A stretch of 64,000 nucleotides of DNA from a virus: positions 40,919 through 104,918 of the IMG/VR virus record IMGVR_UViG_3300019458_000027; one strand, written 5' to 3'. A program made the translations under genes and the position numbers. This document shows, piece by piece, positions 6,308-63,360 of this stretch; the stretch's first letter is position 1; each line of letters begins with the position of its first letter. Below the pieces are notes generated by a model. The model saw only the letters and a program-made list of their open reading frames with translations. It made no database searches and was not told where the DNA came from.

Positions 6308-7762
6308 TTAGACCTCCACCAACTCTTTCCCAAAGGCGGGAGACTTCGATTTCAAGATTGCTCTGACTGTGTTTCCCCTTCCGGCGTTGTAAAGATCAGA
6401 ACGTTCTTGGGAAGTTAAAACCCGTTTCCAGAATACAGCTTCGTCTATCCTTCCATTCCAAAAATTGGATGGCGTGGTGTCAAGATTTATAGCTCCAATT
6501 CCTAAAGATGAAGTCCCAACAAAAACCCCTAGAGTGTGAGAGGAAGAATCTATGGTTCCATTATTAATTTGAATGTTGATAGTATTAGCTTCGGGGTCAT
6601 GCCATGCCACAATAAGATGCCATGAAGCGGTTGATGGGGAACCAAAGCTATTGGCAAGTAAGGAGACGATACCGCCTGGTGATCCATCGTTGTCCACAAA
6701 GAACCTAAACCTGTCCTCTGAGTTTCGGTAGTCAATTCCAAACTCTCGTTGGTCAGTGGAATCGTTACTTTTAGTGTATATAGCCATGTTCCCTGGCTTG
6801 CTATCTAAATATACCCACGCCGACACCGTAAAACCTATATCGCCCGTTTTGATTGCGGAATTATTGGCTCGGTTAAGGTATTCACTGTTCGCCCGTACAA
6901 ATTGCCCCGCTCGACTCCTGATCCCCGTGTTTACCCCAACTGTGTTATTATCGGTCAAACTTAACGACCTGGTATAAGAATTTCCTCTCCCTGAATTATA
7001 AAGAAGGGATCGTTCCTCTGCTGTCAAGACTCTTTTCCAAATTCCTACTTCGTCAATACGCCCATCGTGGAAACCACCATGGGTAGTTGGTTCATTTCCC
7101 ATAGTAAACTCATGAGTGCTATCAAAACTCCCGCCGCTTCTACTCGTAGAATCTATCGCACCACCATTAATTTGAACATTCATTGTATCATTAACCGAAT
7201 CGTGCCAAACAACAACAAAGTACCAAGTATTAATAGATAAAATAACGGTGGATGACAAAGTGGTGGAATTGATTCCATTGGCAACTACAAACTCAACAAT
7301 AGGTCTTGTACCCCCCAACCCAGTGGCGTTATTGACTCTAACGAGATATTCATTTTGTGCGGCGACGTTGGAACTTCCCTTTGCAACGAAATTGAACGCC
7401 GTATCTCCGGAGGACGGCGGCACTGAATCCATATAGAACCAGAACGCTATCGTAAAATCTATATCACCCATACTAATATCAGAATTGTCTGCAACACTAA
7501 GATATTCACTATTGGCCCGTGTAAATTGCGCTCCCCTAACTTTCTTACCAAGTGCTTGAGTTACTGTATTATTGTCGGTAAGATGGTTGGTTCCCTTTTC
7601 GTCCTCCCTGGTTCCGCTTAACTCATCCAAAGTCCAATAAGCCACCAGATTATTAGGAAGGGTGTTTCTAGCGTCCCGCTCGAATTTGTTGCCCCAGGCG
7701 TCAAATCTGGTCCCGCTCGTCTCATCCAATTGCCATAACGCTTTAAGATCGGAAGTTAGCAT
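6308..7762 (-). CDS. LamG-repeat tail protein, two full modules
   Basis: The 484-residue protein starts with a short cap (LKALWQLDETSGTRFD) and then has two complete LamG-like modules with the same landmarks as its neighbours (LTDNNTV, ANSEYL, WYFVVVWHD, GRIDEVGIWKRVLT). The sequence between landmarks is variable, as expected for ligand-binding loops. It overlaps the upstream LamG gene by 7 bases and abuts the downstream one, so the three probably arose by tandem duplication. No signal peptide or catalytic motif is seen. Confidence 0.9.
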   Translation of the reverse strand: MLTSDLKALWQLDETSGTRFDAWGNKFERDARNTLPNNLVAYWTLDELSGTREDEKGTNHLTDNNTVTQALGKKVRGAQFTRANSEYLSVADNSDISMGDIDFTIAFWFYMDSVPPSSGDTAFNFVAKGSSNVAAQNEYLVRVNNATGLGGTRPIVEFVVANGINSTTLSSTVILSINTWYFVVVWHDSVNDTMNVQINGGAIDSTSRSGGSFDSTHEFTMGNEPTTHGGFHDGRIDEVGIWKRVLTAEERSLLYNSGRGNSYTRSLSLTDNNTVGVNTGIRSRAGQFVRANSEYLNRANNSAIKTGDIGFTVSAWVYLDSKPGNMAIYTKSNDSTDQREFGIDYRNSEDRFRFFVDNDGSPGGIVSLLANSFGSPSTASWHLIVAWHDPEANTINIQINNGTIDSSSHTLGVFVGTSSLGIGAINLDTTPSNFWNGRIDEAVFWKRVLTSQERSDLYNAGRGNTVRAILKSKSPAFGKELVEV

Positions 7763-10713
7763 ATTAGAAGCTCCGTATCCTTCTCGAAGATTAAAGATCG
7801 GGTTCTTGGTTTCTTGGTTATAAGTGCATTACCACGCCCCTGCAAATATAAATCACGACGCTCCTGGGCTGTCAATATCCGCTTCCAGAACCCTAACTCA
7901 TCAATAAAGCCATCCCATCTGCTAGCGTTTCCTGAAGTATCGGCACCCACAGTAAGAGGTTCTGAGGTAAAGTCTGGGACACCTATAGTCGCAACTGAAT
8001 CTATAGCCCCGCCATCTATCTGAATGTTTACAGTGTTGGCAACGGAATCATGCCACCCAACTACATGAAGCCATTGTCCTATCGGTGGAGACCCGAAAGA
8101 ATTAGCAGGAACGGTTCCAACTATGGTGCCACTTCCTAGGCCAAAGATGGTAAATTCAAGTCGATCCAGAGAGCTATTATACCGCATTCGATATTCTCGA
8201 CTTCCAGTGGTTGGATCGGACTTAGCAACGATCGTCATAAATGTGGCCTTTGACTCGAAGTAAATCCAAGCGGAGAAGGTGAAATCTATATCCCCAACGG
8301 AAACAGAAGTATTACTGGCTAAGGACAGGTATTCACTGTTGTCAACTTCAAAGTCCGCTGCATTCTCCCTAACCCCTGCTATTGTGGAGCCAACGGTGTT
8401 GTTATCAGTCAACTCTAGCGATCTAGAGTAAGAATTGGCGTTTCCTGAATTATATAAGTCCGAACGCTCTTTCGCTGTAAGGGTACGCTTCCAAATACCG
8501 ATCTCCTCTATTCTACCGTCCCAATGCTTGTCGATAGTCCCCAGCACGTTTCTTGCTCCAATGATGAGAGAATTGCTGGTCCGCTGGGTGCCTTTTTCAT
8601 GAGACGCCGACATTATCCCGTTATTGTTGACTTGAAAAAACAATCTGCCCTTAATCCCGTCGTACCAAGCTACTAGGAATAACCAAGTACCTGTGGTTAT
8701 CGTTACTCCAGCGTTGCCTTCTAGAGTAGTAAAATCTGCGCCATTCGATATGGTAAATTGCCAAATGTAGGTTGGCGTGTTTGGAGAGTTATTAGTGAGA
8801 GATATAGCATACTCTGAAGCCACGCTTCCGGCCTGAGCTTCGCCTTTATGAATCAGTTGGTGAACGTCTCCTGGAAGGGAATCGATATAGACCCAACAGG
8901 CAATAGTAAAATCTACCCGCCCTGAAGCCAGACCAACATCATCATTATCTGGGAGGGATAAATATTCCGAGTTAGCTTTGGTAAATTGCCCAGCTTTTAC
9001 TTTCTTCCCTGCAGCTTGAGTTACTGTATTGTTATCAGTAAGATGATGGCCGCCGTGATATGGGTTGCCGAGGCCATCATTATAAAGGTCTTGACGTTCT
9101 TGGGCGGTAAGGACTTTCTTCCAAATTCCGACCTCATCGATTCGGCCATTATGACGGTTTTCTTGACCAGTGCTGGTGAACACCGCACCCATCTCGAAGG
9201 GATGAGAACTATCGTAGCTTCCGCCATTCCAAGATGTGCTTGCTATCGTCCCGTTGTCAATCTGTATGTTGATGGTATCGGCTACAGAATCGTGCCAGGC
9301 AACGATAAAATACCACTGTCCTGTAACCTGAGTCCCATCGGCGTTTACGTTCGCAAAGGAGACATTGTTCCCAACATGAAGGACGAACCTAGTTCCATTC
9401 CAGTGGATATAATACTCAAGGGTCTTGGTAACGTTCCCATCGCCTTTGCCTAAGATTGTATTCCCCCCTGTAAAGGAATCGATAAATACCCAACAAGCGA
9501 TGGAAAAGTCAATATCACCCATAGACAGGGCAGCGTTGTCGGTAATTGATAGGTACTCAGTGTTGGCTGCGACAAATTGCGCTGCTTTGCTTACCTTCCC
9601 GTCATTTCGGGTTACGGTATTATTATCAGTAAGATGGCTAGAACCCTTGGAATCTATCCTGGTTCCACTCGGCTCCCCCAATTGCCAATACGCCACTAGA
9701 CTTCGGGTGAGTGTTCCATCCGTGTCTTTTTCGAAATAGCTTACTTCGTCCTGTCTTGTGCCAGAAGCCTCATCGAGGGTGTAATAGGCCGAAAGTCCGT
9801 CTCTAAGACTTCCAACTGGAATCCTCCTACCTGGAAAGAATGTGTTACCTCTTCCCCTCTGGTAAAGCTCTCGACGTTCGGAAGACGACAGCACTTTCTT
9901 CCAAAAACCTAACTCATCAATCCTACCGTTCATGAACTCCTTTACCCCGCCACCCCCACTTTCGGTTACAGCCCCTACCAAAAATTGCGTACTGCTGGAA
10001 AAAGCCGCCCCAGTGGTGGAAACAATTACTGGACTTCCTCCATTCACACTAATGGCTATCTGATTGTTCACTGCGTCATGCCAAGCCACTACAAAATACC
10101 AGGTTGCTGTGGTAAGTGCCGTTGGCCATTGTGCGTCGGCACCAGTTCCAGTGTGACCCAGGACTATCTTGTTGTCATTAGCATTTATCTGTAAGAGATA
10201 CTCCTGATTGGGGGAACCAATTTCATACTTTGTTACTACGTTGAAAGAAGAACCAGCAATGGATGGAAGGGAATCTAGGTAAATCCAGCAAGCGATGGTG
10301 TAGTCTATGTCGCCTGTCGTAAGATCACTGTTGCTGGCCCGGCTTAAGTATTCGCTGTTGGCTTTGGTAAATTGGGCGGCCGGTCCTATAATCCCCGAAC
10401 TTTGCGTTACGGTGTTGTTATCAGTAAGATGACTTGATCCTTTAGAATCTCGACGGGTTCCTGAGGTCTCGTCCAATTTCCAATAGGCCACCAATCTGTC
10501 GGCCAATGTAAGACTGGGGTCAACGTCGAATATACCAGGATCGCTACCCCCCATAATAGCCGTCCTGCCTTGATTACAGTCGGTGTCTTTCTCGAATACT
10601 CCTCCCCAAGCCCCAAAACGGGTTCCGTCAGTTTCTTCAAGACGGAAATACGCTTTCAGATTTGTTCTTAGGGAATCGTTGGTATCGTATTCAAAGACAG
10701 GGGACTTAGGCAT
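7756..10713 (-). CDS. LamG-repeat tail protein, four full modules
   Basis: At 985 residues this is the longest protein in the window. After an N-terminal LKAYFRLEETDGTR cap come a full LamG-like module, a second cap (LSAYYTLDEASGTRQD), then three more full modules. Each module is about 210-220 residues and ends GRIDE.G.WK. followed by an LY..G.GN signature. The N-terminus (MPKSPVFEYDTND) may be the tail attachment end. Lectin-like adhesion to the host surface is inferred from the fold family. Confidence 0.9.
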   Translation of the reverse strand: MPKSPVFEYDTNDSLRTNLKAYFRLEETDGTRFGAWGGVFEKDTDCNQGRTAIMGGSDPGIFDVDPSLTLADRLVAYWKLDETSGTRRDSKGSSHLTDNNTVTQSSGIIGPAAQFTKANSEYLSRASNSDLTTGDIDYTIACWIYLDSLPSIAGSSFNVVTKYEIGSPNQEYLLQINANDNKIVLGHTGTGADAQWPTALTTATWYFVVAWHDAVNNQIAISVNGGSPVIVSTTGAAFSSSTQFLVGAVTESGGGGVKEFMNGRIDELGFWKKVLSSSERRELYQRGRGNTFFPGRRIPVGSLRDGLSAYYTLDEASGTRQDEVSYFEKDTDGTLTRSLVAYWQLGEPSGTRIDSKGSSHLTDNNTVTRNDGKVSKAAQFVAANTEYLSITDNAALSMGDIDFSIACWVFIDSFTGGNTILGKGDGNVTKTLEYYIHWNGTRFVLHVGNNVSFANVNADGTQVTGQWYFIVAWHDSVADTINIQIDNGTIASTSWNGGSYDSSHPFEMGAVFTSTGQENRHNGRIDEVGIWKKVLTAQERQDLYNDGLGNPYHGGHHLTDNNTVTQAAGKKVKAGQFTKANSEYLSLPDNDDVGLASGRVDFTIACWVYIDSLPGDVHQLIHKGEAQAGSVASEYAISLTNNSPNTPTYIWQFTISNGADFTTLEGNAGVTITTGTWLFLVAWYDGIKGRLFFQVNNNGIMSASHEKGTQRTSNSLIIGARNVLGTIDKHWDGRIEEIGIWKRTLTAKERSDLYNSGNANSYSRSLELTDNNTVGSTIAGVRENAADFEVDNSEYLSLASNTSVSVGDIDFTFSAWIYFESKATFMTIVAKSDPTTGSREYRMRYNSSLDRLEFTIFGLGSGTIVGTVPANSFGSPPIGQWLHVVGWHDSVANTVNIQIDGGAIDSVATIGVPDFTSEPLTVGADTSGNASRWDGFIDELGFWKRILTAQERRDLYLQGRGNALITKKPRTRSLIFEKDTELLIC

Positions 10714-24939: not shown

Positions 24940-26320
24940 AATCGTCGTCCATCAACCTCTTCCATCGCAAAGATTCCGATTCAACCGGGGAAAGGTCGGC
25001 GGGACTTTTGAAGCCAACGTCAGCGTTCTTCTTCTTTTTCACCCTCTTCACGGACTCTTCAAAATGCCTTCTGGTAAGGTGAATCTTCTCTTTCTTGTAG
25101 GACTTATCATCAATGGCCGAGATAATGGCGGTCGTTACAAGCTCCCTCACATGAGAACCAGTCATTCCATCCGTGGCATCCGCAAGGGCTTTATAATCTA
25201 GCTCGGTTAAATCGCAAACGCAATCCCCACGATTAATGTAGAGCTTAAGGAGAGCTTCCCTCTGCGTCGCCTCAGGTAACTTTATCTCATAAGATCGGTC
25301 GAAACGCCCAGGTCGGCTTCTTAGGGCTTCCTCAATTTGCTCGGCTCTATTGGTAGTAGCAATGGTAACGACATACTCATTTGTCGTCAGACCATCCAAT
25401 TGATTCATAAGCTCCCCTAGTAACCCCATGTCGGTCGATTGTTCTCGGTGCTTGGTATAGAGGTCCATATCCTCAAGGAAAAGAATGGCGGGGGACAGGT
25501 CCCTTACCAATTCGTATATATCACTAACGTCTTTCGCCTCCCGAACAAACCTAGGAGTTACCCAAACAAAAGAGCACCCAACGGTGGAACACAAAATCTT
25601 GCCAATAAGGGTCTTCCCCGTTCCGGGCACACCCTTAAGCATGATTCCTCTTTTGAAAGGAAGCTCGGCTTTCTTGTATGCTTCAATATTGTTGAATAAG
25701 CTATCAATGTTTAGCTTAAGCTCTTTCTTCACTTTCTCAGGGAGAATCACATCATCCCAAGTATATTTTCTGTCTAGTTTAATGTGCTTGAAAGCGGGAT
25801 TTATCTTTTTCCCTTTTAAGAAGTTGTGAGATTTCGCATAAGCCCTGGAATCATTGAGAAATTTTTGTGCTGCGTCGGCTCCCTCTTTTCTGCAAAGAAC
25901 CTCGTAAGTATATAGTCTTGAACCAGAAGAAGCCATCTCCACAACAATAGATTCACCGTTAGGGGTTTTCAAGAAAATGTTGCCCTCGCCCCATCCCCTC
26001 TTGAAAACTTCCGGTTCTATTTCTATGTTGATGTACTCAGGGGCAGAAATATCGTCGTCCCAAACTTTGAAGGATTGACCCCTAATGTACCCCGCCTCCT
26101 TGCAGAAATCCTCAAAGGCGGCGGCAATGAGAATGTGTTCGTACTCGGATATTCTCTGCGTTATCGAAAGAACGTTTTGAATTGGAATCCCAACATGATC
26201 GGAATATAATTTAGATCGTAATTTAGAGTACCAACCAGAATGCCGAAGGGCCTCAGCATACTCCTGTAGGTTGGCTTCCGTAAGCTTCTTTCCTTGCCAA
26301 TCGGGTTTTTCGTCAGACAT
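24929..26320 (-). CDS. AAA ATPase
   Basis: The 463-residue protein has an N-terminal domain of about 200 residues without a recognised family, then a classical AAA module: Walker A MLKGVPGTGKT near 235, Walker B AILFLEDMD near 285, and the second region of homology TTNRAEQIEEALRSRPGRFD with arginine fingers near 325. Such modules unfold or remodel proteins, as in proteasome-ATPase, FtsH, Bcs1 and SpoVK. There is no protease or membrane domain. Position directly upstream of two Mom-like genes suggests a shared function, perhaps remodelling a DNA-protein complex during modification; this is inference. Confidence 0.9.
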   Translation of the reverse strand: MSDEKPDWQGKKLTEANLQEYAEALRHSGWYSKLRSKLYSDHVGIPIQNVLSITQRISEYEHILIAAAFEDFCKEAGYIRGQSFKVWDDDISAPEYINIEIEPEVFKRGWGEGNIFLKTPNGESIVVEMASSGSRLYTYEVLCRKEGADAAQKFLNDSRAYAKSHNFLKGKKINPAFKHIKLDRKYTWDDVILPEKVKKELKLNIDSLFNNIEAYKKAELPFKRGIMLKGVPGTGKTLIGKILCSTVGCSFVWVTPRFVREAKDVSDIYELVRDLSPAILFLEDMDLYTKHREQSTDMGLLGELMNQLDGLTTNEYVVTIATTNRAEQIEEALRSRPGRFDRSYEIKLPEATQREALLKLYINRGDCVCDLTELDYKALADATDGMTGSHVRELVTTAIISAIDDKSYKKEKIHLTRRHFEESVKRVKKKKNADVGFKSPADLSPVESESLRWKRLMDDDYDY

Positions 26321-27851: not shown

Positions 27852-28098
27852 CCTTCTCCTTTTGCCACCTAACGTAGGCGTAACTTCCAACCCCGCTACC
27901 AGCTGCATACGACACAGCCAACCAAAGATTGCTAATATTAGACACGATAGACACCAAAACAGCATACCAAATGATAACGTAGGCAAAATCCAGCATACCC
28001 GATAGAAATGCATGACCTCTGCTAATAGCTTTTACGTGCCAAGAACTAACGAAATCCTCCAACACCCCGGCGAGGAATAATCCAACAAGAAGAAGCAT
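27826..28098 (-). CDS. Membrane protein, 90 aa
   Basis: Three hydrophobic segments are visible: MLLLVGLFLAGVL at the start, FAYVIIWYAVLVSIVSNI in the middle, and LAVSYAAGSGVGSYAYV, followed by a basic tail. The layout resembles small integral membrane proteins of the DUF2179/DUF5698 type, but this is tentative. ATG follows the upstream stop directly. Confidence 0.65.
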   Translation of the reverse strand: MLLLVGLFLAGVLEDFVSSWHVKAISRGHAFLSGMLDFAYVIIWYAVLVSIVSNISNLWLAVSYAAGSGVGSYAYVRWQKEKDGTPKLDK

Positions 28099-28607
28099 TA
28101 CTTTTCCTCGTCTTTGATCTTCTTGGTATACTCTTCCTTGATATGATCAAGCATGGAATCCCAGGTGTCGAATCTCCTGCCCGTTTCCAGTAAAAGGGAC
28201 AGAATCCATGAATTGACCTTACTAACGCTACCCGAACACTTCCAAAGAACGGGGATTTTTTGCTCCCAAGCTTTCACGATTTCGTGCACTGTACCACCCA
28301 TCTGTGCACCGTCGGAATCGGGAACCAAAGCGATTAGAAACAAGGATTTACTAACGGCCGTGATATCCTGATCTCTAATGGGAGCCATATCCTTAAGGAA
28401 CAACTCCCACTGACCTTGTTCCTTAATCTTGGTCATTTTCGTCTTGTGTTCTACTACGGGGAGACCCGATACGTCGGCCTCCCGAATACATGGGTCGAAT
28501 ACATGGAGGCCCAATTTCTCAAGATCGGGAGTCAGTCGTTCTCTCCACTTACTCCCTCCATCCTTAGCGTCCTCGATAGGTCCGCAGAGATAAACCATAT
28601 ATTTCAC
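28098..28607 (-). CDS. Nucleoside 2-deoxyribosyltransferase-like protein
   Basis: The 169-residue protein has the family's landmarks: MVYLCGPIEDAKDGG at the N-terminus (nucleoside-binding GP), FDPCIRE near 38, RDQDITAVSKSLFLIAL near 80, and GAQMGGTVHEIVKAW near 105, where Glu is the expected nucleophile. These enzymes swap bases between deoxynucleosides or hydrolyse modified nucleotides. With the neighbouring DERA it suggests deoxynucleoside salvage or clean-up of unwanted purines. Substrate is not established. Confidence 0.7.
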   Translation of the reverse strand: MKYMVYLCGPIEDAKDGGSKWRERLTPDLEKLGLHVFDPCIREADVSGLPVVEHKTKMTKIKEQGQWELFLKDMAPIRDQDITAVSKSLFLIALVPDSDGAQMGGTVHEIVKAWEQKIPVLWKCSGSVSKVNSWILSLLLETGRRFDTWDSMLDHIKEEYTKKIKDEEK

Positions 28608-28882
28608 GATTCCTCCTTCTCTGAACTTCCATCCTTTGGAAACTCCAACGTAACACTAACCATATTGAACTTAGCTCGGATGGTATTCAGTATCATCAGT
28701 TTGTCGGTAATCTTGTCGGCGGCGGCGTCCTCCGCTTCTGGAACAGCGATCACTGCATGGGCATTACGCAACTCAGCATCGAGAAAGTCGCCGTAGGTCC
28801 TTAGTGCATCGAGAACCATTCGGTATTCATCAAAAGGGAACACTACTTCTGTTTTGTCGGTTTTTATCGTAACGTCTGTCAT
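28604..28882 (-). CDS. Hypothetical protein, 92 aa
   Basis: An N-terminal beta strand pair (VTIKTDKTEVVFPFDEYRMV) leads to helices and a C-terminal strand with an acidic tail. It overlaps its neighbours by ATGA on both sides, between DERA and the deoxyribosyltransferase-like gene. No family is recognised; a regulatory or accessory role in the same pathway is possible. Confidence 0.6.
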   Translation of the reverse strand: MTDVTIKTDKTEVVFPFDEYRMVLDALRTYGDFLDAELRNAHAVIAVPEAEDAAADKITDKLMILNTIRAKFNMVSVTLEFPKDGSSEKEES

Positions 28883-29565
28883 TTTTCCCCTTCCTGCGTC
28901 GGAGATTTTGGATTATCTCGGTCGGTAAGTTGCTTCATAATATCCACACCGGAAGATGTTCCAATTCTCTCGGCACCATGGTTTATAAGCTCTTCCACTA
29001 CATCAATTTGACGAATCCCACCAGAAGCTTTCACCTTAAGGTCATCCCTCTTGTAGTGGTTTATGATAAATAGATCGTGCGGGGTTACACCCCTAGTCTC
29101 CCATCCCGTACAAGTTTTAATCCACTCCGCTTTTGTCTCAGACACCAACCTCGCAGCGTCGGCGATCTGCCTATCCGTCAGATGCGGAGTGCTGATAATT
29201 ATCTTTAGTACCTTTTCAGGATAAGCCTCCTTAACAAGGTTAATTTCGTCCTCAACTTTATGATACGACCCGTCGAGAAAGGCAGAAATGTTCATAACCA
29301 TGTCAATTTCGTCTACCCTCTTTTGAACCTCAGCAAGCTTAGCTTCCGGAGAGTTGTATCCTAAGGGAAATCCAACAACCTGTCCCACCTTAACGGGAGC
29401 ATGAAGAAGTCTAGTATAAACATAGTCTACCCAATAAGGAGGAACCATTACGCTATAGAATCTATAATCCTCTGCTTCCTCAACCAGTTTGTCGTAGTCC
29501 TTTCTGGTCTTGTTCGGATTCAACATCGTGTGATCTATAAGAAGAGCCAACTCTTGCTTAATCAT
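28879..29565 (-). CDS. deoC: Deoxyribose-phosphate aldolase
   Basis: The 228-residue protein matches DERA. Residues 10-16 read LIDHTML. Asp in DEIDMVMNIS is the expected catalytic acid, Lys in WIKTCTGW is the Schiff-base lysine, and Lys in KVKASGGIR is the second active-site lysine. DERA cleaves 2-deoxyribose 5-phosphate to glyceraldehyde 3-phosphate and acetaldehyde. In a phage it could recycle sugar from degraded host DNA. It is co-transcribed with a deoxyribosyltransferase-like gene. Confidence 0.85.
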   Translation of the reverse strand: MIKQELALLIDHTMLNPNKTRKDYDKLVEEAEDYRFYSVMVPPYWVDYVYTRLLHAPVKVGQVVGFPLGYNSPEAKLAEVQKRVDEIDMVMNISAFLDGSYHKVEDEINLVKEAYPEKVLKIIISTPHLTDRQIADAARLVSETKAEWIKTCTGWETRGVTPHDLFIINHYKRDDLKVKASGGIRQIDVVEELINHGAERIGTSSGVDIMKQLTDRDNPKSPTQEGEK

Positions 29566-30676: not shown

Positions 30677-31888
30677 CTATTCATGCGGTACTACATTGAG
30701 ATTGGCTTTCTCCTGCAGTACCTTGTATTTCCTAGTCTGACCGACTGGAAGGTTAGTATCCGCTAGATCGATCGTGTAAATCCAAGTCATGCCCCTCTTC
30801 TTGTTGACCCCGAAGAATTGCTGAGCAGGGTTAGATTCGATCTTCAACACTCTCATAGCAAAGTCGTCGGAACTAGTGAAGGTTCCGTTGGTAATAAGAG
30901 TAAGGTCTTTAGTCCAGTGAATAATGTTTGCCGTGTGGAAATGCCCCACCACCAAGTATCTAAACTTCTCTGGAATCGTGGTGGCCCATCGCATGAGGGC
31001 GGCGATAAGTCCAACCAAAGGAAGGCCCGTGCTACCACCACTAACAGCGTCTCCGTGTGTCAGCAAGAAGTTATGCCCTTGAACTGGCACAACCGCTTTC
31101 CAGTCGTCATAGACATTGAACTTGATCTGCTTATAATTTCTGAAATGGGCTTCCAGGTGTTTGTATAGCACGTAGTCGAAGTTAGTTTTCCTGGAAGCGT
31201 ACTTGTTTACCCGTCCGTGGTTCCCGTAAATACAATGTACTTCCACCTTCTTAAATAGCTTCATCATCGTCAGGAGGAAATCCCGCAGCATCGGAATCCC
31301 AAGTTGGTAAATCTGGTCAATGACCGGCATCTCAATCCCGTGGGCTTGGCCTGGATATATCATATCTCCATCAACCACGTCCCCAATGAGGAAGATGTTC
31401 AGCTTGTTAATCTTGTACCCTCTTCGGAGAAGGTTAACAATACGATGGACAGAGTAATTTAGCTTAGTGAATCTTTCCCCCATGACGTGATAATTGAAAG
31501 TTTCCGTCCGCTTCCCGAAGTGGATATCGGACAGAACCAACACCGCCTCTTCCACAGAACGATCATCGACGGGGCCCATGATTGGCTTTTCTATGACGGG
31601 CTTGGGGTCGAAATAATTCAAGTCCTTAACCAGGGGGGTAAGGGCCTCAACCACCTGTTGTGTCTGTGTTTTCTGTTCCTCAATCTGGTCCTGAGCGGCC
31701 ATAGACATGGCTCTCTTCACAATCTTTCCCTTACTTCTCAGAAGAGTTAAACGGGCAGAAACCTTCCCATACTCAGTTTCAAGATTCTGAGCGATAGCAA
31801 CCAGGGAAAGCCGACGATTGTATAGGTCAATCAACTTATCGTCGTCTGCCTGTTCCCAATATGTCCGGCCTGCTGGCGATGTTCTCAT
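30677..31888 (-). CDS. HTH-calcineurin-like phosphoesterase fusion
   Basis: Residues 1-60 form a small helix-turn-helix domain (LIDLYNRRLSLVAIAQNLET) of the type that reads DNA. Residues 115-380 are a metallophosphoesterase with all motifs: LVLSDIHFGK, LIGDVVDGD, YGNHGR, LTHGDAV and VGHFHT. Such phage enzymes may be nucleases or phosphatases acting on nucleic acid ends. A GGAGGG site precedes ATG. The fusion of a DNA-reading domain to a phosphoesterase suggests a DNA substrate. Confidence 0.85.
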   Translation of the reverse strand: MRTSPAGRTYWEQADDDKLIDLYNRRLSLVAIAQNLETEYGKVSARLTLLRSKGKIVKRAMSMAAQDQIEEQKTQTQQVVEALTPLVKDLNYFDPKPVIEKPIMGPVDDRSVEEAVLVLSDIHFGKRTETFNYHVMGERFTKLNYSVHRIVNLLRRGYKINKLNIFLIGDVVDGDMIYPGQAHGIEMPVIDQIYQLGIPMLRDFLLTMMKLFKKVEVHCIYGNHGRVNKYASRKTNFDYVLYKHLEAHFRNYKQIKFNVYDDWKAVVPVQGHNFLLTHGDAVSGGSTGLPLVGLIAALMRWATTIPEKFRYLVVGHFHTANIIHWTKDLTLITNGTFTSSDDFAMRVLKIESNPAQQFFGVNKKRGMTWIYTIDLADTNLPVGQTRKYKVLQEKANLNVVPHE

Positions 31889-32073: not shown

Positions 32074-33141
32074 TTAGTGAAGTATCGGTCCTTCTGCTAA
32101 GCGATCAACCATATGTGTAATATCTGGCCCCGTTCCAACCAAGGTCACAGGAACACCTGTCAACTCCTGTATTTTATCAATAAATCTCTTGGCCGATGAG
32201 GTCAGATTCTCATATTTATTGACCCCGTGATTTTTCCAGTCTATATAATCCGCAAACATCAGGGCAATTGCACTGGGGCGGTTCGCTTTCACGGCTCGAA
32301 CAACCATTTCCTCATTGAACTCGCTCACCCTCCGAACTCTTTTAGTAACCGTGGTTAGCTCTGTGATAATCCCCTCAGGAGCACCACACCGCTTAGGAAC
32401 CGTTGGCCAATCAATCTCATCCGCTCCCATCGGCCCTGAGTTACCCGCCACCCTGATTGGATAGGTTCTAACTACCATGTAGACATTATTAACCACCGTC
32501 GGAGCTAACCCACTATCAGATAGTAAACTAGCGGAGATCACATCACGTGAAGTAACAAATGGCCACTCCCCATGATTTAAACTGATACCGTAGCCCTGTG
32601 TACCCTCAATCATAATCTTAAGGCCCCGATCTACGGCCTCATTAAGGTAGTCGGACACATTGGTTACGAACGGCTTTAACCAACCAACGTCTTTGGCTCG
32701 AAGGAAACCATCCGTACGGAGAACTTTCTCAGCTTGAGCTTCTCCAATTCCTTCGCAAGTGGAACCCAGTTTCTCGAACATTCTCCTTTGCTGTTCGTTT
32801 AACCGATGTTTCTCGGTAACTATGCCGGCATTCCGGTCGATCTTTAGGCGAGTTGTGGAGTGGGGAACCAAGTCCATTTCGGCTTTGAGGACTGTTTCCT
32901 CCAACAATCCATTCGCACCAACACACAACACCGTGGTGTCGTCAACCAAACCCGCACACGGAAGCTGTCTCATCTTCCACTTCTGGTCACCAACCTGAAC
33001 GGTATGCCCTGCATTGGGGGCACCAACCCGTACGGCAACATCATAATGACTTTTCTTGGCAAGATAGGCAACCACGGCTCCCTTACCCTCCGAGCCATAT
33101 TGCCCCCCAACAATTAGATCGACCGATTTAGTCTTTTCCAT
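32074..33141 (-). CDS. purZ: PurZ, phage 2-aminoadenylosuccinate synthetase
   Basis: The 355-residue protein belongs to the adenylosuccinate synthetase family. Its P-loop reads GGQYGSEGKG, where cellular PurA has GTQWGDEGKG. Ser at residue 17 replaces the catalytic Asp, the change that marks phage PurZ and lets it use dGMP. GAPNAGHT (about residue 45), IEGTQGYGISLNHG and TSRD, TYPIRVAGNSG and the end region VTLVGTGPD are retained. PurZ joins dGMP and aspartate; host PurB then gives dZMP. The start at 33141 follows GAGGAG. It lies downstream of the SbcC-like gene. Z would replace A throughout the phage genome. Confidence 0.88.
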   Translation of the reverse strand: MEKTKSVDLIVGGQYGSEGKGAVVAYLAKKSHYDVAVRVGAPNAGHTVQVGDQKWKMRQLPCAGLVDDTTVLCVGANGLLEETVLKAEMDLVPHSTTRLKIDRNAGIVTEKHRLNEQQRRMFEKLGSTCEGIGEAQAEKVLRTDGFLRAKDVGWLKPFVTNVSDYLNEAVDRGLKIMIEGTQGYGISLNHGEWPFVTSRDVISASLLSDSGLAPTVVNNVYMVVRTYPIRVAGNSGPMGADEIDWPTVPKRCGAPEGIITELTTVTKRVRRVSEFNEEMVVRAVKANRPSAIALMFADYIDWKNHGVNKYENLTSSAKRFIDKIQELTGVPVTLVGTGPDITHMVDRLAEGPILH

Positions 33142-33160
33142 TGATTTCTCCTCACCGTTA

Positions 33161-34822
33161 TTATACCCTCTCCAACACCTTAGATACTCCGTTCTCTTTA
33201 ACGACCTCAGACACATTGATGGTTCTATCCCGAACGTCAGTATGACTAATCACCAATACCTTCTTGAATTGTTCTGTTAATCGGGACACAAGGGAAATGA
33301 ATCGATCTCTTCCTTCCTCGTCCAATGATTCCGAAGCTTCATCAATAATGAGGGTCTTGAGACGATAGCTATTCCTACGGGCCAAGACCACAGCAATTCC
33401 TAACCGAACAGCCAAATCTATTCGGGCCTTCTCTCCCCCGCTGAAATTGCTATAAATTCGGTCGTGTAACCCATCGTAGATGAAAAGCTGTAGAGTGTCA
33501 GCTATTCCTCCACCCTTTAATTCCTTCTCCAAACGCAATTCTACCCTGAACCGTCCGTTTGTTAACTGATCAAGAAAGGTATTGGCCGCCAGTTGGACTT
33601 CCTCCAATGCGGAGGACATGATAATGGTGGGGATACCGTTACTGCCAAAAGCGTCCAACAGATACCGATAAATGGCAAATTCCTCCTTCTTTGTTGTTAT
33701 CTTACTCTGTAATTCGCTAAGTTGGGCTTTCAAACGGGTCTGGTTGTCATACATGGAAACAATATAACCACGCTTTTCGCTAAGCTCCTGCAAAGTTTTC
33801 TCATATCCATTCACTAATATAGCGTTCTCACTGATCTCGAAAGTTAGATTCCCGAAATCCTTCTTAGAAAAGGTCTCAATCTCGGCATAAATAGCTTCCA
33901 GCTTGTCTTTATATGAGGCCATATGCTCTTGGAGTCTCTGGATGGCCACACTACGGGATTTATCGCTCCATCCCCCTCCACAAAAGGGACAACTATCGGA
34001 GCTTATCCCATTTAGAGACGACTCCAACAATTGAAGCTCCTCTACTTTATTTTGTAAGAACTCTCTCTTTCCATTTAGCTTGTCGAGGAGGTCTTGATTT
34101 TCTTTTTTAGCCGCCTCCAATATGTGTGTCAAGTAACGTTGTTTGCTATTAACTTCTATCCTAGCATCGTTGACAACGTTAATTCGAAGGTCGAGAGATT
34201 GAAGTTTCTCTTCCGAACCCTCTAGTGGGATAGCTTCTTGTTCTAAAGTTTTGGCCCTAGTTTCATATTCAATGAGGTCGTTTTGGATTATTCTCACGTT
34301 TTCTCGTACTTTGGTTTCGTAAGTTTGATACTCCGACAATCCTAGGATATCATAAAAGACCCTCTTAGCTTCCTTGGGGGTTAGGGAAGAGAAGGAACTT
34401 AGTTTTCCTTGTTCAATACAAGCGGAATTGGAAAAAGTTTCATATGTAAATCCTAAAACCCGTTCAATCTTTTGCTGTGTGTCTGCCAGAGTGTCCCCCG
34501 TTATTTCCTCGTCGTTCTTAAAAAAGGAAAGGTAAGACTTTTCGTTACGATTCCTACCCCGAATTACAGTATAAGAATCCCCGTTCAAACCAAATCCTAC
34601 CGTAACCTCGGCGTAATCTTCGCCCTCGGTTATAAGCTGGTCCCCCGCCCTATCTTTGTTCCGGGCCACCCCAAACAAACCCCAAGTTATGGAATCTTTA
34701 ACTAACGAGGACTTCCCCGCTCCATTTTTTCCGACAAAAACCTTAACCGATGTGTTGGAGAAATCCAACACCGTGTCCTTATGACTAAGGAAATTAGTCA
34801 GTTTCAGACTTAGGATATTCAT
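33161..34822 (-). CDS. SbcC/Rad50-like recombination ATPase
   Basis: The 553-residue protein has the ABC-type P-loop VGKNGAGKSSL near residue 32, two coiled-coil arms with a zinc hook CPFCGG near residue 280, and a C-terminal signature FSGGEKARIDLA followed by Walker B LIIDEASESLD. This is the T4 gp46/SbcC architecture in short form. It works with the SbcD-like nuclease encoded at 36445-37398 in processing DNA ends and recombination-dependent replication. Several small genes now separate the pair. Confidence 0.88.
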   Translation of the reverse strand: MNILSLKLTNFLSHKDTVLDFSNTSVKVFVGKNGAGKSSLVKDSITWGLFGVARNKDRAGDQLITEGEDYAEVTVGFGLNGDSYTVIRGRNRNEKSYLSFFKNDEEITGDTLADTQQKIERVLGFTYETFSNSACIEQGKLSSFSSLTPKEAKRVFYDILGLSEYQTYETKVRENVRIIQNDLIEYETRAKTLEQEAIPLEGSEEKLQSLDLRINVVNDARIEVNSKQRYLTHILEAAKKENQDLLDKLNGKREFLQNKVEELQLLESSLNGISSDSCPFCGGGWSDKSRSVAIQRLQEHMASYKDKLEAIYAEIETFSKKDFGNLTFEISENAILVNGYEKTLQELSEKRGYIVSMYDNQTRLKAQLSELQSKITTKKEEFAIYRYLLDAFGSNGIPTIIMSSALEEVQLAANTFLDQLTNGRFRVELRLEKELKGGGIADTLQLFIYDGLHDRIYSNFSGGEKARIDLAVRLGIAVVLARRNSYRLKTLIIDEASESLDEEGRDRFISLVSRLTEQFKKVLVISHTDVRDRTINVSEVVKENGVSKVLERV

Positions 34823-41358: not shown

Positions 41359-41841
41359 TTATCCTCCGCAACATTTCTTCCACTTTTTAGTGCTTCCACA
41401 AAGACATGGCTCGTTACGCCCAGGTTCCTTGGCCCTACGATCTTCGATAGTTAGTCCTTGTAGGTGGTCGATCTCATGCTGAATGCATTGCGCCGTCAGT
41501 CCGTACACAGCGAAACGTCTACCGTCCCCATTCTCAAAGACAACATCAGAAGCCCGTTTAACCGTGAAGATTTGGCCGGGATAACTCAAACAACCCTCAT
41601 GGTAAAACTTTAGTCCCGTCATTTCAATGATCTTAGGATTCCACAAATCTACCTTTTCTTCGCCAATCCTAACAATAGCAATCTGCATAGGAAGTCCGAT
41701 TTGAACTCCAGCAAGTCCGATTCCGGGAACCTTTGACGCCTTTAGCTCAAGCTCCAACTGAGCAAATAGACTGGGGAGATTTACCTCCTCATTCCTTTCA
41801 ACTTTTCTGCTTACCCGTCCTCGAATCCCACCGTAGATCAT
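41359..41841 (-). CDS. Peptide deformylase with C-terminal SEC-C motif
   Basis: The 160-residue protein has the three deformylase motifs: GIGLAGVQIG (motif 1, about residue 40), EGCLSYPG (motif 2, Cys ligand, about 83) and QHEIDHLQG (motif 3, about 120). It ends PGRNEPCLCGSTKKWKKCC, a SEC-C zinc knuckle. Deformylases remove the N-terminal formyl group from new proteins. Marine phage deformylases are known, but fusion to a SEC-C zinc knuckle, which may tether it to ribosomes or nascent chains, is unusual. Confidence 0.88.
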   Translation of the reverse strand: MIYGGIRGRVSRKVERNEEVNLPSLFAQLELELKASKVPGIGLAGVQIGLPMQIAIVRIGEEKVDLWNPKIIEMTGLKFYHEGCLSYPGQIFTVKRASDVVFENGDGRRFAVYGLTAQCIQHEIDHLQGLTIEDRRAKEPGRNEPCLCGSTKKWKKCCGG

Positions 41842-46100: not shown

Positions 46101-46604
46101 CTATCTCTTAACTAGAGTTTCCGCTTTAGCAAATAAAGCGTCTACCTTAGCATAGAGATCATCGAATCCTGTATTGTTGTCAAGTACCGCAGATACGGGG
46201 TACTCGTCCATCTCGGTTTCAGAGGCATGGTTGTCAACGATTCCAGTATCCCGTTGGACACGGACGACAATGCCGCCCAATTCCTTAATGGCCTCGGCCT
46301 CATTTGGGAAACGAACATCTGGAATGACGAAGCATACACTATCGTCTTTCTTCCACACCTTCTCAATGAACTTTGTTACAACCCGAATCCAGAAACCTTG
46401 GTCGTAGTTTCTGACCACCATACCCAACTCCTGGAGAAGCTTCCGTCCTTGCTGATCTTTCTTTCCGCTCCAACCGACAAGCCCCGCTACCTTTTTCAAG
46501 TAGTCGGCGTTGCCGATTCTTTCATACCCATAGCGGAGAACAAGATACGATGCTACTGTATCCTTGCCCACCCGTTGCTTTCCGGTAAGTCCAATTACAA
46601 CCAT
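46101..46604 (-). CDS. Deoxynucleoside monophosphate kinase
   Basis: The 167-residue protein has a P-loop VIGLTGKQRVGKDTVAS at the N-terminus, IPDVRFPNEAEAIKELGG near residue 95 and VQRDT...HASETEMDEY near 120, the signature of phage dNMP kinases such as T4 gp1. These phosphorylate dNMPs, including modified ones. In this genome the enzyme is a candidate for making dZDP from the PurZ pathway product; that is inference. Confidence 0.8.
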   Translation of the reverse strand: MVVIGLTGKQRVGKDTVASYLVLRYGYERIGNADYLKKVAGLVGWSGKKDQQGRKLLQELGMVVRNYDQGFWIRVVTKFIEKVWKKDDSVCFVIPDVRFPNEAEAIKELGGIVVRVQRDTGIVDNHASETEMDEYPVSAVLDNNTGFDDLYAKVDALFAKAETLVKR

Positions 46605-48110: not shown

Positions 48111-50645
48111 CTATTTTACCCCCACAACCTCTTCCGAGACTTTCTCCATCTGACCCCATGACTTCCCCACCTTGAGGTCTATTTCAATGGGAACCCTTCT
48201 CTCCAATTCTGTAAATACAGAGGGGTATTCAGTCATGTCTTTCCTAATAATTTTAATGACCTCATCTTTTTCCCCTTCTGGAACCTCCAACACTATTGAA
48301 TCATGAACTGTTAAAACGAAGCGGGATTTTAAAGCTCTCTGCTTTAATGATATACTCATTCTAACCATAGCATTATATAAAGTGTCGGCGGTATTTGCTT
48401 GGATAATCGAATTAGTGGCTTGCCGTTGGGCCTCTTCCTGCTTATCTTCATCTGAACTCAATATGGCCGGTAATCTCCTAGCCCTACCATAATGACTTCG
48501 TACCTCCAGGTGTTCTTTAAGCTCGGCTGTGATGGCGTATTCCCATCTCCGTGCCGTTGAGTAACGGCGGTAAAAACGAGTAATAATTTCGGTCGCCTTA
48601 TCCTCTGAAATCTTTAACCTCTTAGCGAGAGTGTATGAGCTAATTTTGAAGATCATTGAGTACACAACCGTTTTAGCAACAGACCTTTGCTCTTGAGTAA
48701 CCTTGTCCTGGGGAGTATTGAAAATCTCCGACGCAATTAGCTTATGAATATCCACACCACTAGTCAAGTCCTCGGCCATTTTATCGTCTCTGGAATACAT
48801 GGCCCACATTCTAAAGTCCATCTGCCGATAGTCGGCCTCTAAGAAAATAAACCCTGGGTCTGGAATGAAAATCTCTTTGATCTCATGATCTCTAATGATG
48901 TTTTGTAGGTTGGGGTCTCGGCTGGATAGTCTACCAATCACCGTGCCGTGTTGCAAGTAATGCGTATGAAGTCTTCCCTCGCTATCTATTCGCTCCTTAA
49001 TGCCATCAATATAGGTGCTGATAAGCTTCTGAACGCTTCGGTATTGAACGATCATGTTGGGAATCTCATGACGATCGGCCACTTCTTTAAGAACCTCTTC
49101 ATCCGTAGAGGCGTTCCCGGTGGCCGTCTCTTTCACTGACTTCAATCTAAGAACGTCAAACAATAACACTCTTAATTGGACGGGGGAGCCAAAGTTAAAC
49201 GGCTCCGGCTCGTGAATCTTCTTAGATTTGACTACCTCGGACATGGTATTGCCGTGCTCGTCAATCGTCCTTTTTACTTTATTATTCTTTCGATTGGCTA
49301 TAAGCTGTTCGGCTTGCTTTACCTCAGGAAATCCTCTGAGACGGTGATCTAAGTCCTCCAGGATATCTCCATACTTTTTCTTAAAATACTCCAACTTTTT
49401 CATGTCAATTCTAATCCCTCTCCACTCCATATCGAGCAGAACATTAGTCATTGGCATGACAATCTTCTTAAATAGAAGATCAAGGTTGGCAGGGCCTCTA
49501 TAGCTGATATCGTATTTTAGTTTTGGTTCGAAAAGCTCCTTTAACCGTAGAGTGCAATCGGCGTCGGCACCACAATATTGCCACAAATCTTCATCGGGAG
49601 CTTCATTAAGCTTTATATTTCCATCCTCTACCTTTCGAAACTCCCTAAGCTTTTCTTCATAGCCGCCCATGTCGATATCGGGGAGCCAAGCTAGCTGTTT
49701 CAATCCATGATCGGAATTTTCGTCTAGAAGGTGATGGGCCAGCATGGTATCAAAATCGTAACCATTGACTTCAACGCCCACGTCCCTAAGAAACTTTCTA
49801 TCAAAATTACCGTTGTGGCCCACCTTATGAATTTCATTGTTTGAAAAGAACGGTTTCAATAAATCTAAGATTTCTTTACTCTTCATGTCGGTGATCACGT
49901 GGGCCTCTCCCTTTTTCCAAGAGAAGGCAATACAACGAATTTCTCCAGTATGATGGTCTAAACTGGTGGTTTCAATATCGAAGCTAACCCATTCTTGGGA
50001 GTTTAATTGACCAACCAACCCCTCTACTTCCTGAGGAGTTTTATATAAAGTAACCTTGGTGGGGTCTGGTCTAGTTATTTCACCGGTCGTGGCTAGCTCG
50101 TTGATAAGCTTCAAGTCTGTGATCATGGCTTCACGGATTCTTGGTTGAACCGATTCCCTTAGTACATATGATGGATGAAACGTGGGGATGATATGGGCTT
50201 TATATTTCTCAGACCAAACTGGTGTACCTCTCATCTTAGTGATACCGAGGGTTTTGCCTAGGATTCTCTTCATTGCATCGTTACCTAAAACACCAATTAC
50301 AGTAGGTTTGATGAGGGCAATTTCTTCCTCTAGTTTAGAGAAACAAACTTCTACTTCCTCAGGTGTGGGGGGTCTATCTTTACCATTATCTTGGGTTCTG
50401 AAAAAGACGGTGTTGGTAATCCAAATGGAGGGTCTATCAATCCCCGCTTGCTTCAAACAATCATTTAGCAACTGGCCGGCGGGGCCGATAAATGGACGAC
50501 CTACGACTTCTTCATCCCTACCAGGAGACATTCCTAATAGAAGTATCTTAGCTAATTTATTGCCTTCCCCGGACACAGACTTGACCTTCATCCCTTTGAA
50601 AGCAGTTTCAAACGTCGTCGCAGGAACGAAGGTCAAGTCGCTCAT
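48111..50645 (-). CDS. Uracil-DNA glycosylase / DNA polymerase I fusion
   Basis: Residues 1-190 match family 4 uracil-DNA glycosylases (LLGMSPGRDEEVVGRPFIGP, FHPSYVLRE). Residues 210-400 are a 3'-5' exonuclease (VSFDIETTSLD, HNGNFDRKFL, YCGADADC). Residues 430-844 are an A-family polymerase: motif A EADYRQMDFRMWAMYS, O-helix region RSVAKTVVYSMIFKISSY, motif C VHDSIVLEV. SPO1-type phages have a similar fusion. The O-helix has Tyr and Phe where E. coli Pol I has Phe762 and Tyr766, and the steric-gate Glu is Asp. In a PurZ genome this is the DpoZ candidate. Confidence 0.9.
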   Translation of the reverse strand: MSDLTFVPATTFETAFKGMKVKSVSGEGNKLAKILLLGMSPGRDEEVVGRPFIGPAGQLLNDCLKQAGIDRPSIWITNTVFFRTQDNGKDRPPTPEEVEVCFSKLEEEIALIKPTVIGVLGNDAMKRILGKTLGITKMRGTPVWSEKYKAHIIPTFHPSYVLRESVQPRIREAMITDLKLINELATTGEITRPDPTKVTLYKTPQEVEGLVGQLNSQEWVSFDIETTSLDHHTGEIRCIAFSWKKGEAHVITDMKSKEILDLLKPFFSNNEIHKVGHNGNFDRKFLRDVGVEVNGYDFDTMLAHHLLDENSDHGLKQLAWLPDIDMGGYEEKLREFRKVEDGNIKLNEAPDEDLWQYCGADADCTLRLKELFEPKLKYDISYRGPANLDLLFKKIVMPMTNVLLDMEWRGIRIDMKKLEYFKKKYGDILEDLDHRLRGFPEVKQAEQLIANRKNNKVKRTIDEHGNTMSEVVKSKKIHEPEPFNFGSPVQLRVLLFDVLRLKSVKETATGNASTDEEVLKEVADRHEIPNMIVQYRSVQKLISTYIDGIKERIDSEGRLHTHYLQHGTVIGRLSSRDPNLQNIIRDHEIKEIFIPDPGFIFLEADYRQMDFRMWAMYSRDDKMAEDLTSGVDIHKLIASEIFNTPQDKVTQEQRSVAKTVVYSMIFKISSYTLAKRLKISEDKATEIITRFYRRYSTARRWEYAITAELKEHLEVRSHYGRARRLPAILSSDEDKQEEAQRQATNSIIQANTADTLYNAMVRMSISLKQRALKSRFVLTVHDSIVLEVPEGEKDEVIKIIRKDMTEYPSVFTELERRVPIEIDLKVGKSWGQMEKVSEEVVGVK

Positions 50646-62795: not shown

Positions 62796-63044
62796 TTACA
62801 CCTTAAACTTTATGCCCGTACCGTTGCAACGAGGGCAGGGATGAGGGTCACCGTAATTATCATCTACCCATTTATCTCCATGGCATAGATCACAGACAAT
62901 TTCGGTTCGTTTAAATCCTTTCTTGGTTAGTTGATAGAGAATCTCCCCCTTCTCGCCAAGAATCATTTCAATCAGCCCTTGGTCAAGGAGATCGTTCAAG
63001 TCCTCGTCTAACGGTTGAAATTCGTCAGGATTTAGTCTTTCCAT
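62796..63044 (-). CDS. DnaJ-type zinc-finger protein, 82 aa
   Basis: The N-terminal 50 residues look like a winged-helix fragment (DLLDQGLIEMILGEKGEILY). CDLCHGDKW and CPRCNGTG at the C-terminus are the CxxCxG.G type of DnaJ zinc fingers. It may bind nucleic acid or unfolded protein. Confidence 0.65.
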   Translation of the reverse strand: MERLNPDEFQPLDEDLNDLLDQGLIEMILGEKGEILYQLTKKGFKRTEIVCDLCHGDKWVDDNYGDPHPCPRCNGTGIKFKV

Positions 63045-63360
63045 CTTTTTTGTTCCTAGTCCAGTCTCTTAGTTTGACTTCATCCCACGTATCTACGATG
63101 GCTTCTTCCAGACTAATTCCCCGTAGCGCACAATAGTTAGCTAGGAAAACAACAGCGTCCCCAATGGCGTCTTTGATGGCGTCGTCATGCTCAGCTATCG
63201 TTCCACGGATTCCCTGTTCTTGCTTTAAATGGGCGTGGCAAAGCTCTCCAATTTCCTCAACAACTCCAAGGAGAGGATGATAGGAATGCTTTCTTCCGAA
63301 GTTTTTAGAGGCCCATTTCTCTACTTCTTTCTGAAACTTGGTTAAGTTTAACGGTGTCAT
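63025..63360 (-). CDS. MazG-like nucleotide pyrophosphohydrolase, MazZ candidate
   Basis: The 111-residue protein has LGVVEEIGELCHAHLK near residue 30 (EEIGE metal ligands) and AIGDAVVFLANYCALRG near 70 (the second ExxD-type half), the all-alpha MazG fold. MazG-like enzymes hydrolyse NTPs to NMPs. In Z-genome phages MazZ converts dGTP to dGMP for PurZ, and this gene is a natural candidate. Ordinary MazG function in stress or nucleotide clean-up is not excluded. Confidence 0.75.
   Translation of the reverse strand: MTPLNLTKFQKEVEKWASKNFGRKHSYHPLLGVVEEIGELCHAHLKQEQGIRGTIAEHDDAIKDAIGDAVVFLANYCALRGISLEEAIVDTWDEVKLRDWTRNKKDGKTKS

What the first reader, a model, noticed from the sequence alone, without database searches (positions are those of the whole stretch)
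32074..33141. PurZ gene: this phage may replace adenine with 2-aminoadenine
The P-loop GGQYGSEGKG has Ser where PurA has the catalytic Asp, with GAPNAGHT and the rest of the family motifs intact. By established knowledge this substitution marks PurZ of Z-genome phages. It implies restriction-resistant Z-DNA.
Basis: partly seen in the sequence, partly recalled or inferred. Interest (0 to 1): 0.9.

Follow-up and report, generated by a model that had tools for sequence, protein, structure and literature searches.

The report
PurZ-type gene, probable Z-DNA phage
An uncultivated phage carries a gene for PurZ, the enzyme some phages use to replace the DNA base adenine with 2-aminoadenine; it forms a lineage outside the two named PurZ groups, and whether the phage's DNA really contains the altered base has not been shown.

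Summary
The gene is real. It lies on the MINUS strand, 33141->32074 (355 aa, Shine-Dalgarno GGTGAGGAG), in a 104,918-bp IMG/VR phage record. The protein is a full-length adenylosuccinate-synthetase fold (AlphaFold pLDDT 93.9). Two of its residues separate PurZ from PurA: Ser17 (Asp in every Asp-type PurA sampled) and Thr263 (Gly in PurA). It keeps Asp298, the guanine-nucleotide-type residue of PurZ0 and PurA that ATP-using PurZ replaces with Asn/Gln. A tree places it in the Ser clade with PurZ and PurZ0 (100/99). Grouping it with Asp-type PurA is rejected (AU p = 1.9e-7). It belongs to neither PurZ0 nor PurZ but, with one metagenomic relative (50% identity), forms a separate deep lineage.

Genome support for Z-DNA is moderate. 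The phage's PolA has the helix-O Tyr->Phe change shared by both known DpoZ clades (2 of 79 control PolAs have it), and NDT-like, DeoC, MazG-like and dNMP-kinase genes are present. No dUTPase, DatZ or PurB was found, and MazG is not enriched near such purZ genes. Ser17 marks the PurZ clade, not a Z genome: Ser homologues also occur in bacterial genomes, some fused to a kinase. PurZ activity is likely (~0.8); Z-substituted DNA is plausible (~0.6) but unshown.

The parts
32074..33141 (-). purZ-like gene, 355 aa: Ser17 (PurA Asp), Thr263 (PurA Gly), Asp298 (guanine-nucleotide-type donor site), Arg268 (PurA R303 position)
   Evidence: tree; structure
33148..33156 (-). Shine-Dalgarno-like GGTGAGGAG ahead of the ATG at 33141
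   Evidence: sequence read
33161..34822 (-). SbcC-like gene immediately upstream of purZ (19 nt gap, same strand)
   Evidence: phrog_77 E 5.4e-84
30677..31888 (-). metallophosphoesterase-type exonuclease downstream of purZ
   Evidence: phrog_284 E 1.8e-49
48111..50645 (-). DNA polymerase I (N-terminal UDG-superfamily domain, 3'-5' exonuclease, PolA) with Phe at the helix-O Tyr position; candidate DpoZ
28098..28607 (-). nucleoside deoxyribosyltransferase-like protein with NDT Tyr6, Pro57-type and Glu nucleophile positions; possible dNMP glycosidase
   Evidence: PF15891 E 5.6e-6 (27.1 bits, below the cut-off of 30); alignment
28879..29565 (-). DeoC-like deoxyribose-phosphate aldolase, two genes from the NDT-like gene
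   Evidence: PF01791 E 1.4e-4 (22.0 bits, below the cut-off of 23.8)
46101..46604 (-). deoxynucleoside monophosphate kinase, possible dZMP kinase
   Evidence: phrog_139 E 5.2e-43, PF21448 E 8.2e-18
63025..63360 (-). MazG-like pyrophosphatase, possible dGTP to dGMP source; not shown to be a MazZ
   Evidence: phrog_715 E 1.1e-11; alignment; control

Best explanation
The gene encodes a PurZ0-like 2-amino-adenylosuccinate synthetase. It joins aspartate to the 6-position of dGMP, using a guanine nucleotide (probably GTP) as phosphate donor, and gives N6-succino-2-amino-dAMP (dSMP). Host adenylosuccinate lyase (PurB) would turn dSMP into dZMP. A kinase, either the phage dNMP kinase or a host one, would make dZTP, and the phage's own PolA would put Z opposite T, partly or fully replacing A. 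Shown: the gene, its fold, the clade, the diagnostic residues and the Phe in the polymerase. Inferred: substrate, donor, product and Z in the DNA.
For: Tree: Ser clade 100/99, apart from Asp-type PurA; holding it with PurA costs 66.6 log-likelihood units, AU p = 1.9e-7. Ser17 and Thr263 match 15/15 PurZ and PurZ0 and 0/13 PurA; both columns contact substrates in S-2L PurZ (PMC8342488). Asp298 matches PurZ0 (7/7) and PurA (13/13), not ATP-type PurZ (0/8). Confident model with the PurA/PurZ fold: 5k7x TM 0.89, PurZ0 7vf6 TM 0.83. PolA helix O has Phe, the one mutation shared by both DpoZ clades (PMC8599892), also seen here in Ghobes, Wayne, VP2 and SH-Ab 15497; 2 of 79 control phage PolAs have it. 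In other Ser-clade phages a dUTPase lies within 3 kb downstream of purZ in 23 of 56 loci, most within 100 bp or so, as dutZ does in known PurZ0 phages (PMC12884076).
Against: No dUTPase, YfbR-type DatZ or PurB was found in the 104.9-kb record (the record may be incomplete). Phe is not proof of DpoZ: it occurs in two phage records without purZ, L205 and L256, and none of the PolAs near other metagenomic Ser-clade purZ genes has it; PurZ0 phage Galactica has Tyr. The PolA falls in neither DpoZ clade. Arg268 is PurA-like, so discrimination against ribonucleotides is not assured. Ser homologues exist in bacterial genomes. The best single PDB match by sequence and by fold is archaeal PurA.
Confidence: 0.65

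Rival explanations
1. A phage-encoded ordinary adenylosuccinate synthetase of archaeal type (IMP to adenylosuccinate) that boosts adenine nucleotide supply.
For: Best sequence and structure matches are Pyrococcus PurA 5k7x/2d7u; the short-PurA model scores above the PurZ model; Asp298 and Arg268 are PurA-like.
Against: The catalytic Asp is Ser and the Gly of the aspartate loop is Thr, as in every PurZ and PurZ0 sampled and no PurA; the tree rejects grouping with PurA.
Confidence: 0.1
2. A true PurZ enzyme in a phage whose genome is not fully Z: it makes dZTP or drains dGMP for partial substitution or nucleotide-pool control, with the host or phage polymerase still using dATP.
For: No known dATP-removing gene (DatZ, dUTPase) found; PolA outside both DpoZ clades; other Ser lineages lack the DpoZ Phe and some lie in bacterial genomes.
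Against: PolA has the Phe seen in characterised DpoZ enzymes; an NDT-like gene plus DeoC could remove dAMP.
Confidence: 0.22
3. A Ser-clade enzyme with a different amination product or substrate (for example GMP, or a signalling or defence nucleotide), as may hold for the bacterial kinase-fused homologues.
For: Bacterial Ser homologues fused to P-loop kinases with DUF7002 partners, or beside MmeI or Mrr restriction genes; Arg268 retained.
Against: The window protein is a single domain in a phage replication and recombination region and does not group with the kinase-fused clade; characterised Ser enzymes act on dGMP.
Confidence: 0.08

Closest known systems
PurZ0 of Gordonia phages Ghobes and Archimedes (7VF6), Arthrobacter phage Wayne
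   Same: Ser at the catalytic Asp, Thr273-type residue, Asp at the donor base site, RVAGNSG segment, short form; PolA with Phe in helix O (Ghobes, Wayne)
   Different: 35-37% identity; outside the PurZ0 clade (100/100); no dUTPase (DutZ) found; NDT-like protein has Glu at the DmtZ Asp12 position and lacks a clear Asn77; PolA is UDG-fused and outside DpoZ-1
PurZ of phiVC8-like phages and cyanophage S-2L (6FM1, 7ODX)
   Same: Ser and Thr signature, fold
   Different: Asp298 instead of Asn/Gln (predicted guanine-nucleotide rather than ATP donor); outside the PurZ clade; no DatZ; MazG-like protein lacks the MazZ-1 Asp60 (Asn here)
Bacillus phage vB_BpsS-140 PurA/PurZ
   Same: Ser-clade enzyme in a phage with dUTPase, NDT-like and adenylate kinase genes
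   Different: 36% identity, Asn at the donor site, branches on the PurZ side of the tree
Metagenomic phage contig IMGVR_UViG_3300033145_000244 (L021)
   Same: sister protein, 50% identity (100/99)
   Different: P-loop reads DGQYGSCGKG; its contig encodes what looks like a DnaE-type polymerase (by eye) and an adenylate kinase-like protein
Archaeal short PurA (Pyrococcus horikoshii 5K7X)
   Same: length, fold, C-terminal region, Asp at the GTP site
   Different: Asp instead of Ser17, Gly instead of Thr263

Membership tests
PurZ superclade (PurZ + PurZ0) | Ser in place of the catalytic Asp of PurA | tested here: met
   Ser17; 15/15 PurZ/PurZ0 Ser, 13/13 PurA Asp
PurZ superclade (PurZ + PurZ0) | Thr in place of Gly in the aspartate loop (S-2L T273) | tested here: met
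   Thr263
PurZ superclade (PurZ + PurZ0) | groups with PurZ/PurZ0, not PurA | tested here: met
   100/99 support; AU p = 1.9e-7 against PurA
PurZ superclade (PurZ + PurZ0) | converts dGMP + Asp to dSMP | not testable with these tools
   needs purified enzyme
PurZ0 | inside the PurZ0 clade | tested here: not met
   outside the 100/100 PurZ0 clade
PurZ0 | Asp at the donor-base site (guanine nucleotide) | tested here: met
   Asp298; donor itself not assayed
PurZ0 | dutZ in the genome (98/98 PurZ0 phages in PMC12884076) | tested here: not met
   no PF00692 match in the 104,918-bp record; record may be incomplete
PurZ (ATP type) | inside the PurZ clade, Asn/Gln at the donor site | tested here: not met
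PurZ (ATP type) | datZ in the genome | tested here: not met
   no PF12917 match; record may be incomplete
DpoZ | Phe for the conserved helix-O Tyr | tested here: met
   background 2/79
DpoZ | inside the phiVC8-like or Wayne-like DpoZ clade | tested here: not met
DmtZ | NDT residues Tyr6, Asp12, Asn77, Glu103 | tested here: inconclusive
   Tyr and Glu kept, Asp12 is Glu, Asn77 column unclear (probably Asp)
MazZ | guanine-specific Ile56/Asp60 (MazZ-1) | tested here: not met
   Val and Asn; other MazZ types not excluded
Z-genome phage | 2-aminoadenine in virion DNA | not testable with these tools
   needs LC-MS

The most novel reading that the evidence does not exclude
A third, separately assembled Z-DNA system: a deep PurZ lineage with a guanine-nucleotide donor, paired with an independently altered UDG-fused PolA (Tyr to Phe) and with an NDT-like protein plus DeoC removing dAMP in place of DatZ or DutZ.
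Probability: 0.3. Interest if true: 0.65.

Novelty: new variant of a known kind. Interest (0 to 1): 0.45.

Why it matters
Replacing adenine with 2-aminoadenine changes the chemistry of the genome and blocks many restriction enzymes. The isolated Z-phages fall into two enzyme groups, PurZ0 and PurZ, with matching polymerases and pool-cleaning enzymes. This phage and the many metagenomic Ser-clade relatives found here show that the named groups are two branches inside a much wider clade. They give concrete candidates for testing how the pathway arose, whether polymerase selectivity evolved more than twice, and whether Ser-type enzymes always mean Z-DNA.

Tried and rejected
Close-relative scans with single sequences (PurZ, PolA, NDT) found nothing; alignment queries were needed. 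MazG-like gene as a PurZ partner: its type is no commoner in Ser-purZ records (3/24) than in control PolA records (2/19), so I give it little weight. The PF03819 search of the own genome missed this gene, so empty family searches there are not proof of absence. The helix-O Phe was first taken as strong proof of DpoZ; controls lowered it, because it occurs without purZ and most Ser-clade PolAs have Tyr. Conserved SbcC-purZ synteny with vB_BpsS-140 was tested and not found. dUTPase presence alone discriminates weakly (14/32 metagenomic Ser-purZ records against 5/24 controls); its position next to purZ is the informative part. Placement inside PurZ0 or PurZ was not supported by either tree.

Full report
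Observation. The stretch 32074-33141 holds one open frame on the minus strand, ATG at 33141, 355 aa. A Shine-Dalgarno sequence GGTGAGGAG precedes the ATG, and the upstream gene, an SbcC homologue, ends 19 nt away. The window is bases 40919-104918 of a 104,918-bp IMG/VR virus record with terminase; other virion-type genes in the rest of the record were recognised by eye only. Pfam, PHROGs and NCBIfam all place the protein in the adenylosuccinate synthetase family. PHROG 1211 (2-aminooxy adenylosuccinate synthetase) gives E = 3.3e-72. The NCBIfam PurZ model (229 bits, cut-off 300) and the short archaeal PurA model (323, cut-off 368) both miss their cut-offs.

Residues. Against S-2L PurZ, whose substrate contacts are published (PMC8342488), the window has Ser17 (S23), Thr263 (T273), Lys267 (K277) and Asp298 (Q308). 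In the sampled set Ser17 and Thr263 occur in all 15 PurZ and PurZ0 and in none of 13 PurA. Asp298 occurs in all PurZ0 and PurA and in no ATP-type PurZ. S-2L PurZ uses ATP or dATP (PMC8342488). That PurZ0 uses GTP rests on my own knowledge of the PurZ0 structure paper (entry 7VF6, paper not held); the sentence in PMC12884076 states the preferences the other way round, which I take to be a slip. Arg268 stands where PurA has R303, which faces the ribose 2'-hydroxyl, and where phiVC8 has K267, so strict preference for the deoxy substrate is not certain.

Phylogeny. A 95-row tree (LG+C20) separates a Ser clade (100/99) from Asp-type PurA. PurZ0 (100/100) and PurZ (100/100) are both nested in it. 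The window pairs with metagenomic L021 (100/99) and lies in neither. A 41-row tree agrees, and forcing the window and L021 to the PurA side is rejected, p = 1.9e-7. Of 80 metagenomic viral relatives, nearly all carry Ser; one long-branched sequence, L091, carries Asp.

Structure. AlphaFold2 with 46 sequences gives pLDDT 93.9, pTM 0.92. Foldseek against the PDB returns only adenylosuccinate and deoxyguanylosuccinate synthetases as strong hits: 5k7x first (TM 0.89), PurZ0 7vf6 at rank 4 (0.83), phiVC8 PurZ 6fko and 6fm1 (0.82-0.83), S-2L 7odx (0.81). The fold does not choose between PurA and PurZ; residues and tree do.

Polymerase. The phage encodes a UDG-exonuclease-PolA protein at 48111-50645. 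Helix O reads AKTVVYSMIFKISS, with Phe where PolA enzymes carry Tyr. [quoted passage not shown] In 80 control phage PolAs, found through exonuclease motifs so not selected at this site, 77 have Tyr, 2 Phe and 1 lacks the region; the records of those two lack purZ. PolAs near other metagenomic Ser-purZ genes carry no Phe. The window PolA branches with ordinary phage PolAs, outside both DpoZ clades. I read this as moderate support for Z selectivity, arisen separately if real.

Partners. The record holds an NDT-like gene (28098-28607), a DeoC-like gene (28879-29565), a dNMP kinase (46101-46604) and a MazG-like gene (63025-63360); the NDT, DeoC and MazG Pfam scores are below the curated cut-offs. 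dUTPase, YfbR/DatZ and PurB searches of the own record were empty; a similar search for MazG also came up empty although the gene is there, so these negatives are soft. In the wider Ser clade a dUTPase lies within 3 kb downstream of purZ in 23 of 56 loci, mostly adjacent, and NDT-like genes with DmtZ-type residues and PurB genes recur. That ties the clade as a whole to the known Z pathway, although the window's own genome lacks the dUTPase. The window NDT-like protein keeps the Tyr, Pro and Glu positions but has Glu for Asp12. The MazG type shows no association with purZ.

Ser is not enough. Seven bacterial genome contigs carry Ser-clade proteins. In Synergistaceae (L106) and Cellulomonas (L102) the PurZ domain lies in a ~550-aa frame behind an N-terminal extension (a P-loop kinase by Pfam in L106) followed by a DUF7002 gene; in L106 an Mrr nuclease is nearby. 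In Mesorhizobium (L103) it is followed by a dCTP-deaminase-like gene and an MmeI-type restriction-methylase. These may be islands or prophage remnants; I did not settle which. They show that the Ser signature identifies the enzyme clade, not a Z genome.

Conclusion. PurZ-type enzyme: about 0.8. PurZ plus Z-containing phage DNA: about 0.65 as the best single account. It is a new, deep variant of a known kind, and the chemistry of the virion DNA remains to be measured.

Noticed in passing
L106:2380-4749, L102:2434-4734, L061:5515-7137: Ser-type PurZ domain in ~550-aa frames with an N-terminal P-loop kinase (Pfam in L106 and L061), followed in L106 and L102 by a DUF7002 gene; L106 also has an Mrr nuclease. 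Possible bacterial nucleotide or defence system, not described in the papers searched.
   Followed up: partly
L103:2935-7005 (Mesorhizobium qingshengii): Ser-type PurZ gene followed by a dCTP-deaminase-like gene and an MmeI-type restriction-methylase, on a bacterial genome contig.
   Followed up: partly
L002:7540-8016 and 25006-26181 (Bacillus phage vB_BpsS-140): Cultured Bacillus phage with Ser-type purZ plus NDT (DmtZ-like residues), adenylate kinase and dUTPase genes: a ready laboratory candidate for a Z-DNA phage outside the known groups.
   Followed up: partly
L205 (IMGVR_UViG_3300044797_000101): Phage PolA with the DpoZ-like helix-O motif MFNMGS but no purZ in its 119.8-kb record.
   Followed up: partly
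window 48111-50645: PolA carries an N-terminal uracil-DNA-glycosylase-superfamily domain (PF03167 E 3.1e-29), shared with many phage polymerases.
   Followed up: no
window 41359-41841: Phage peptide deformylase with a C-terminal SEC-C motif.
   Followed up: no
L182:3295-3699 (record bases of the window's phage outside the window): dCMP/cytidine deaminase-like gene in the same phage genome.
   Followed up: no
window 4190-10713: Three long neighbouring genes that look like repeats of one another by eye (repeated segments such as LTDNNTVT, NGRIDE and GFWKR), perhaps tail or receptor-binding proteins.
   Followed up: no
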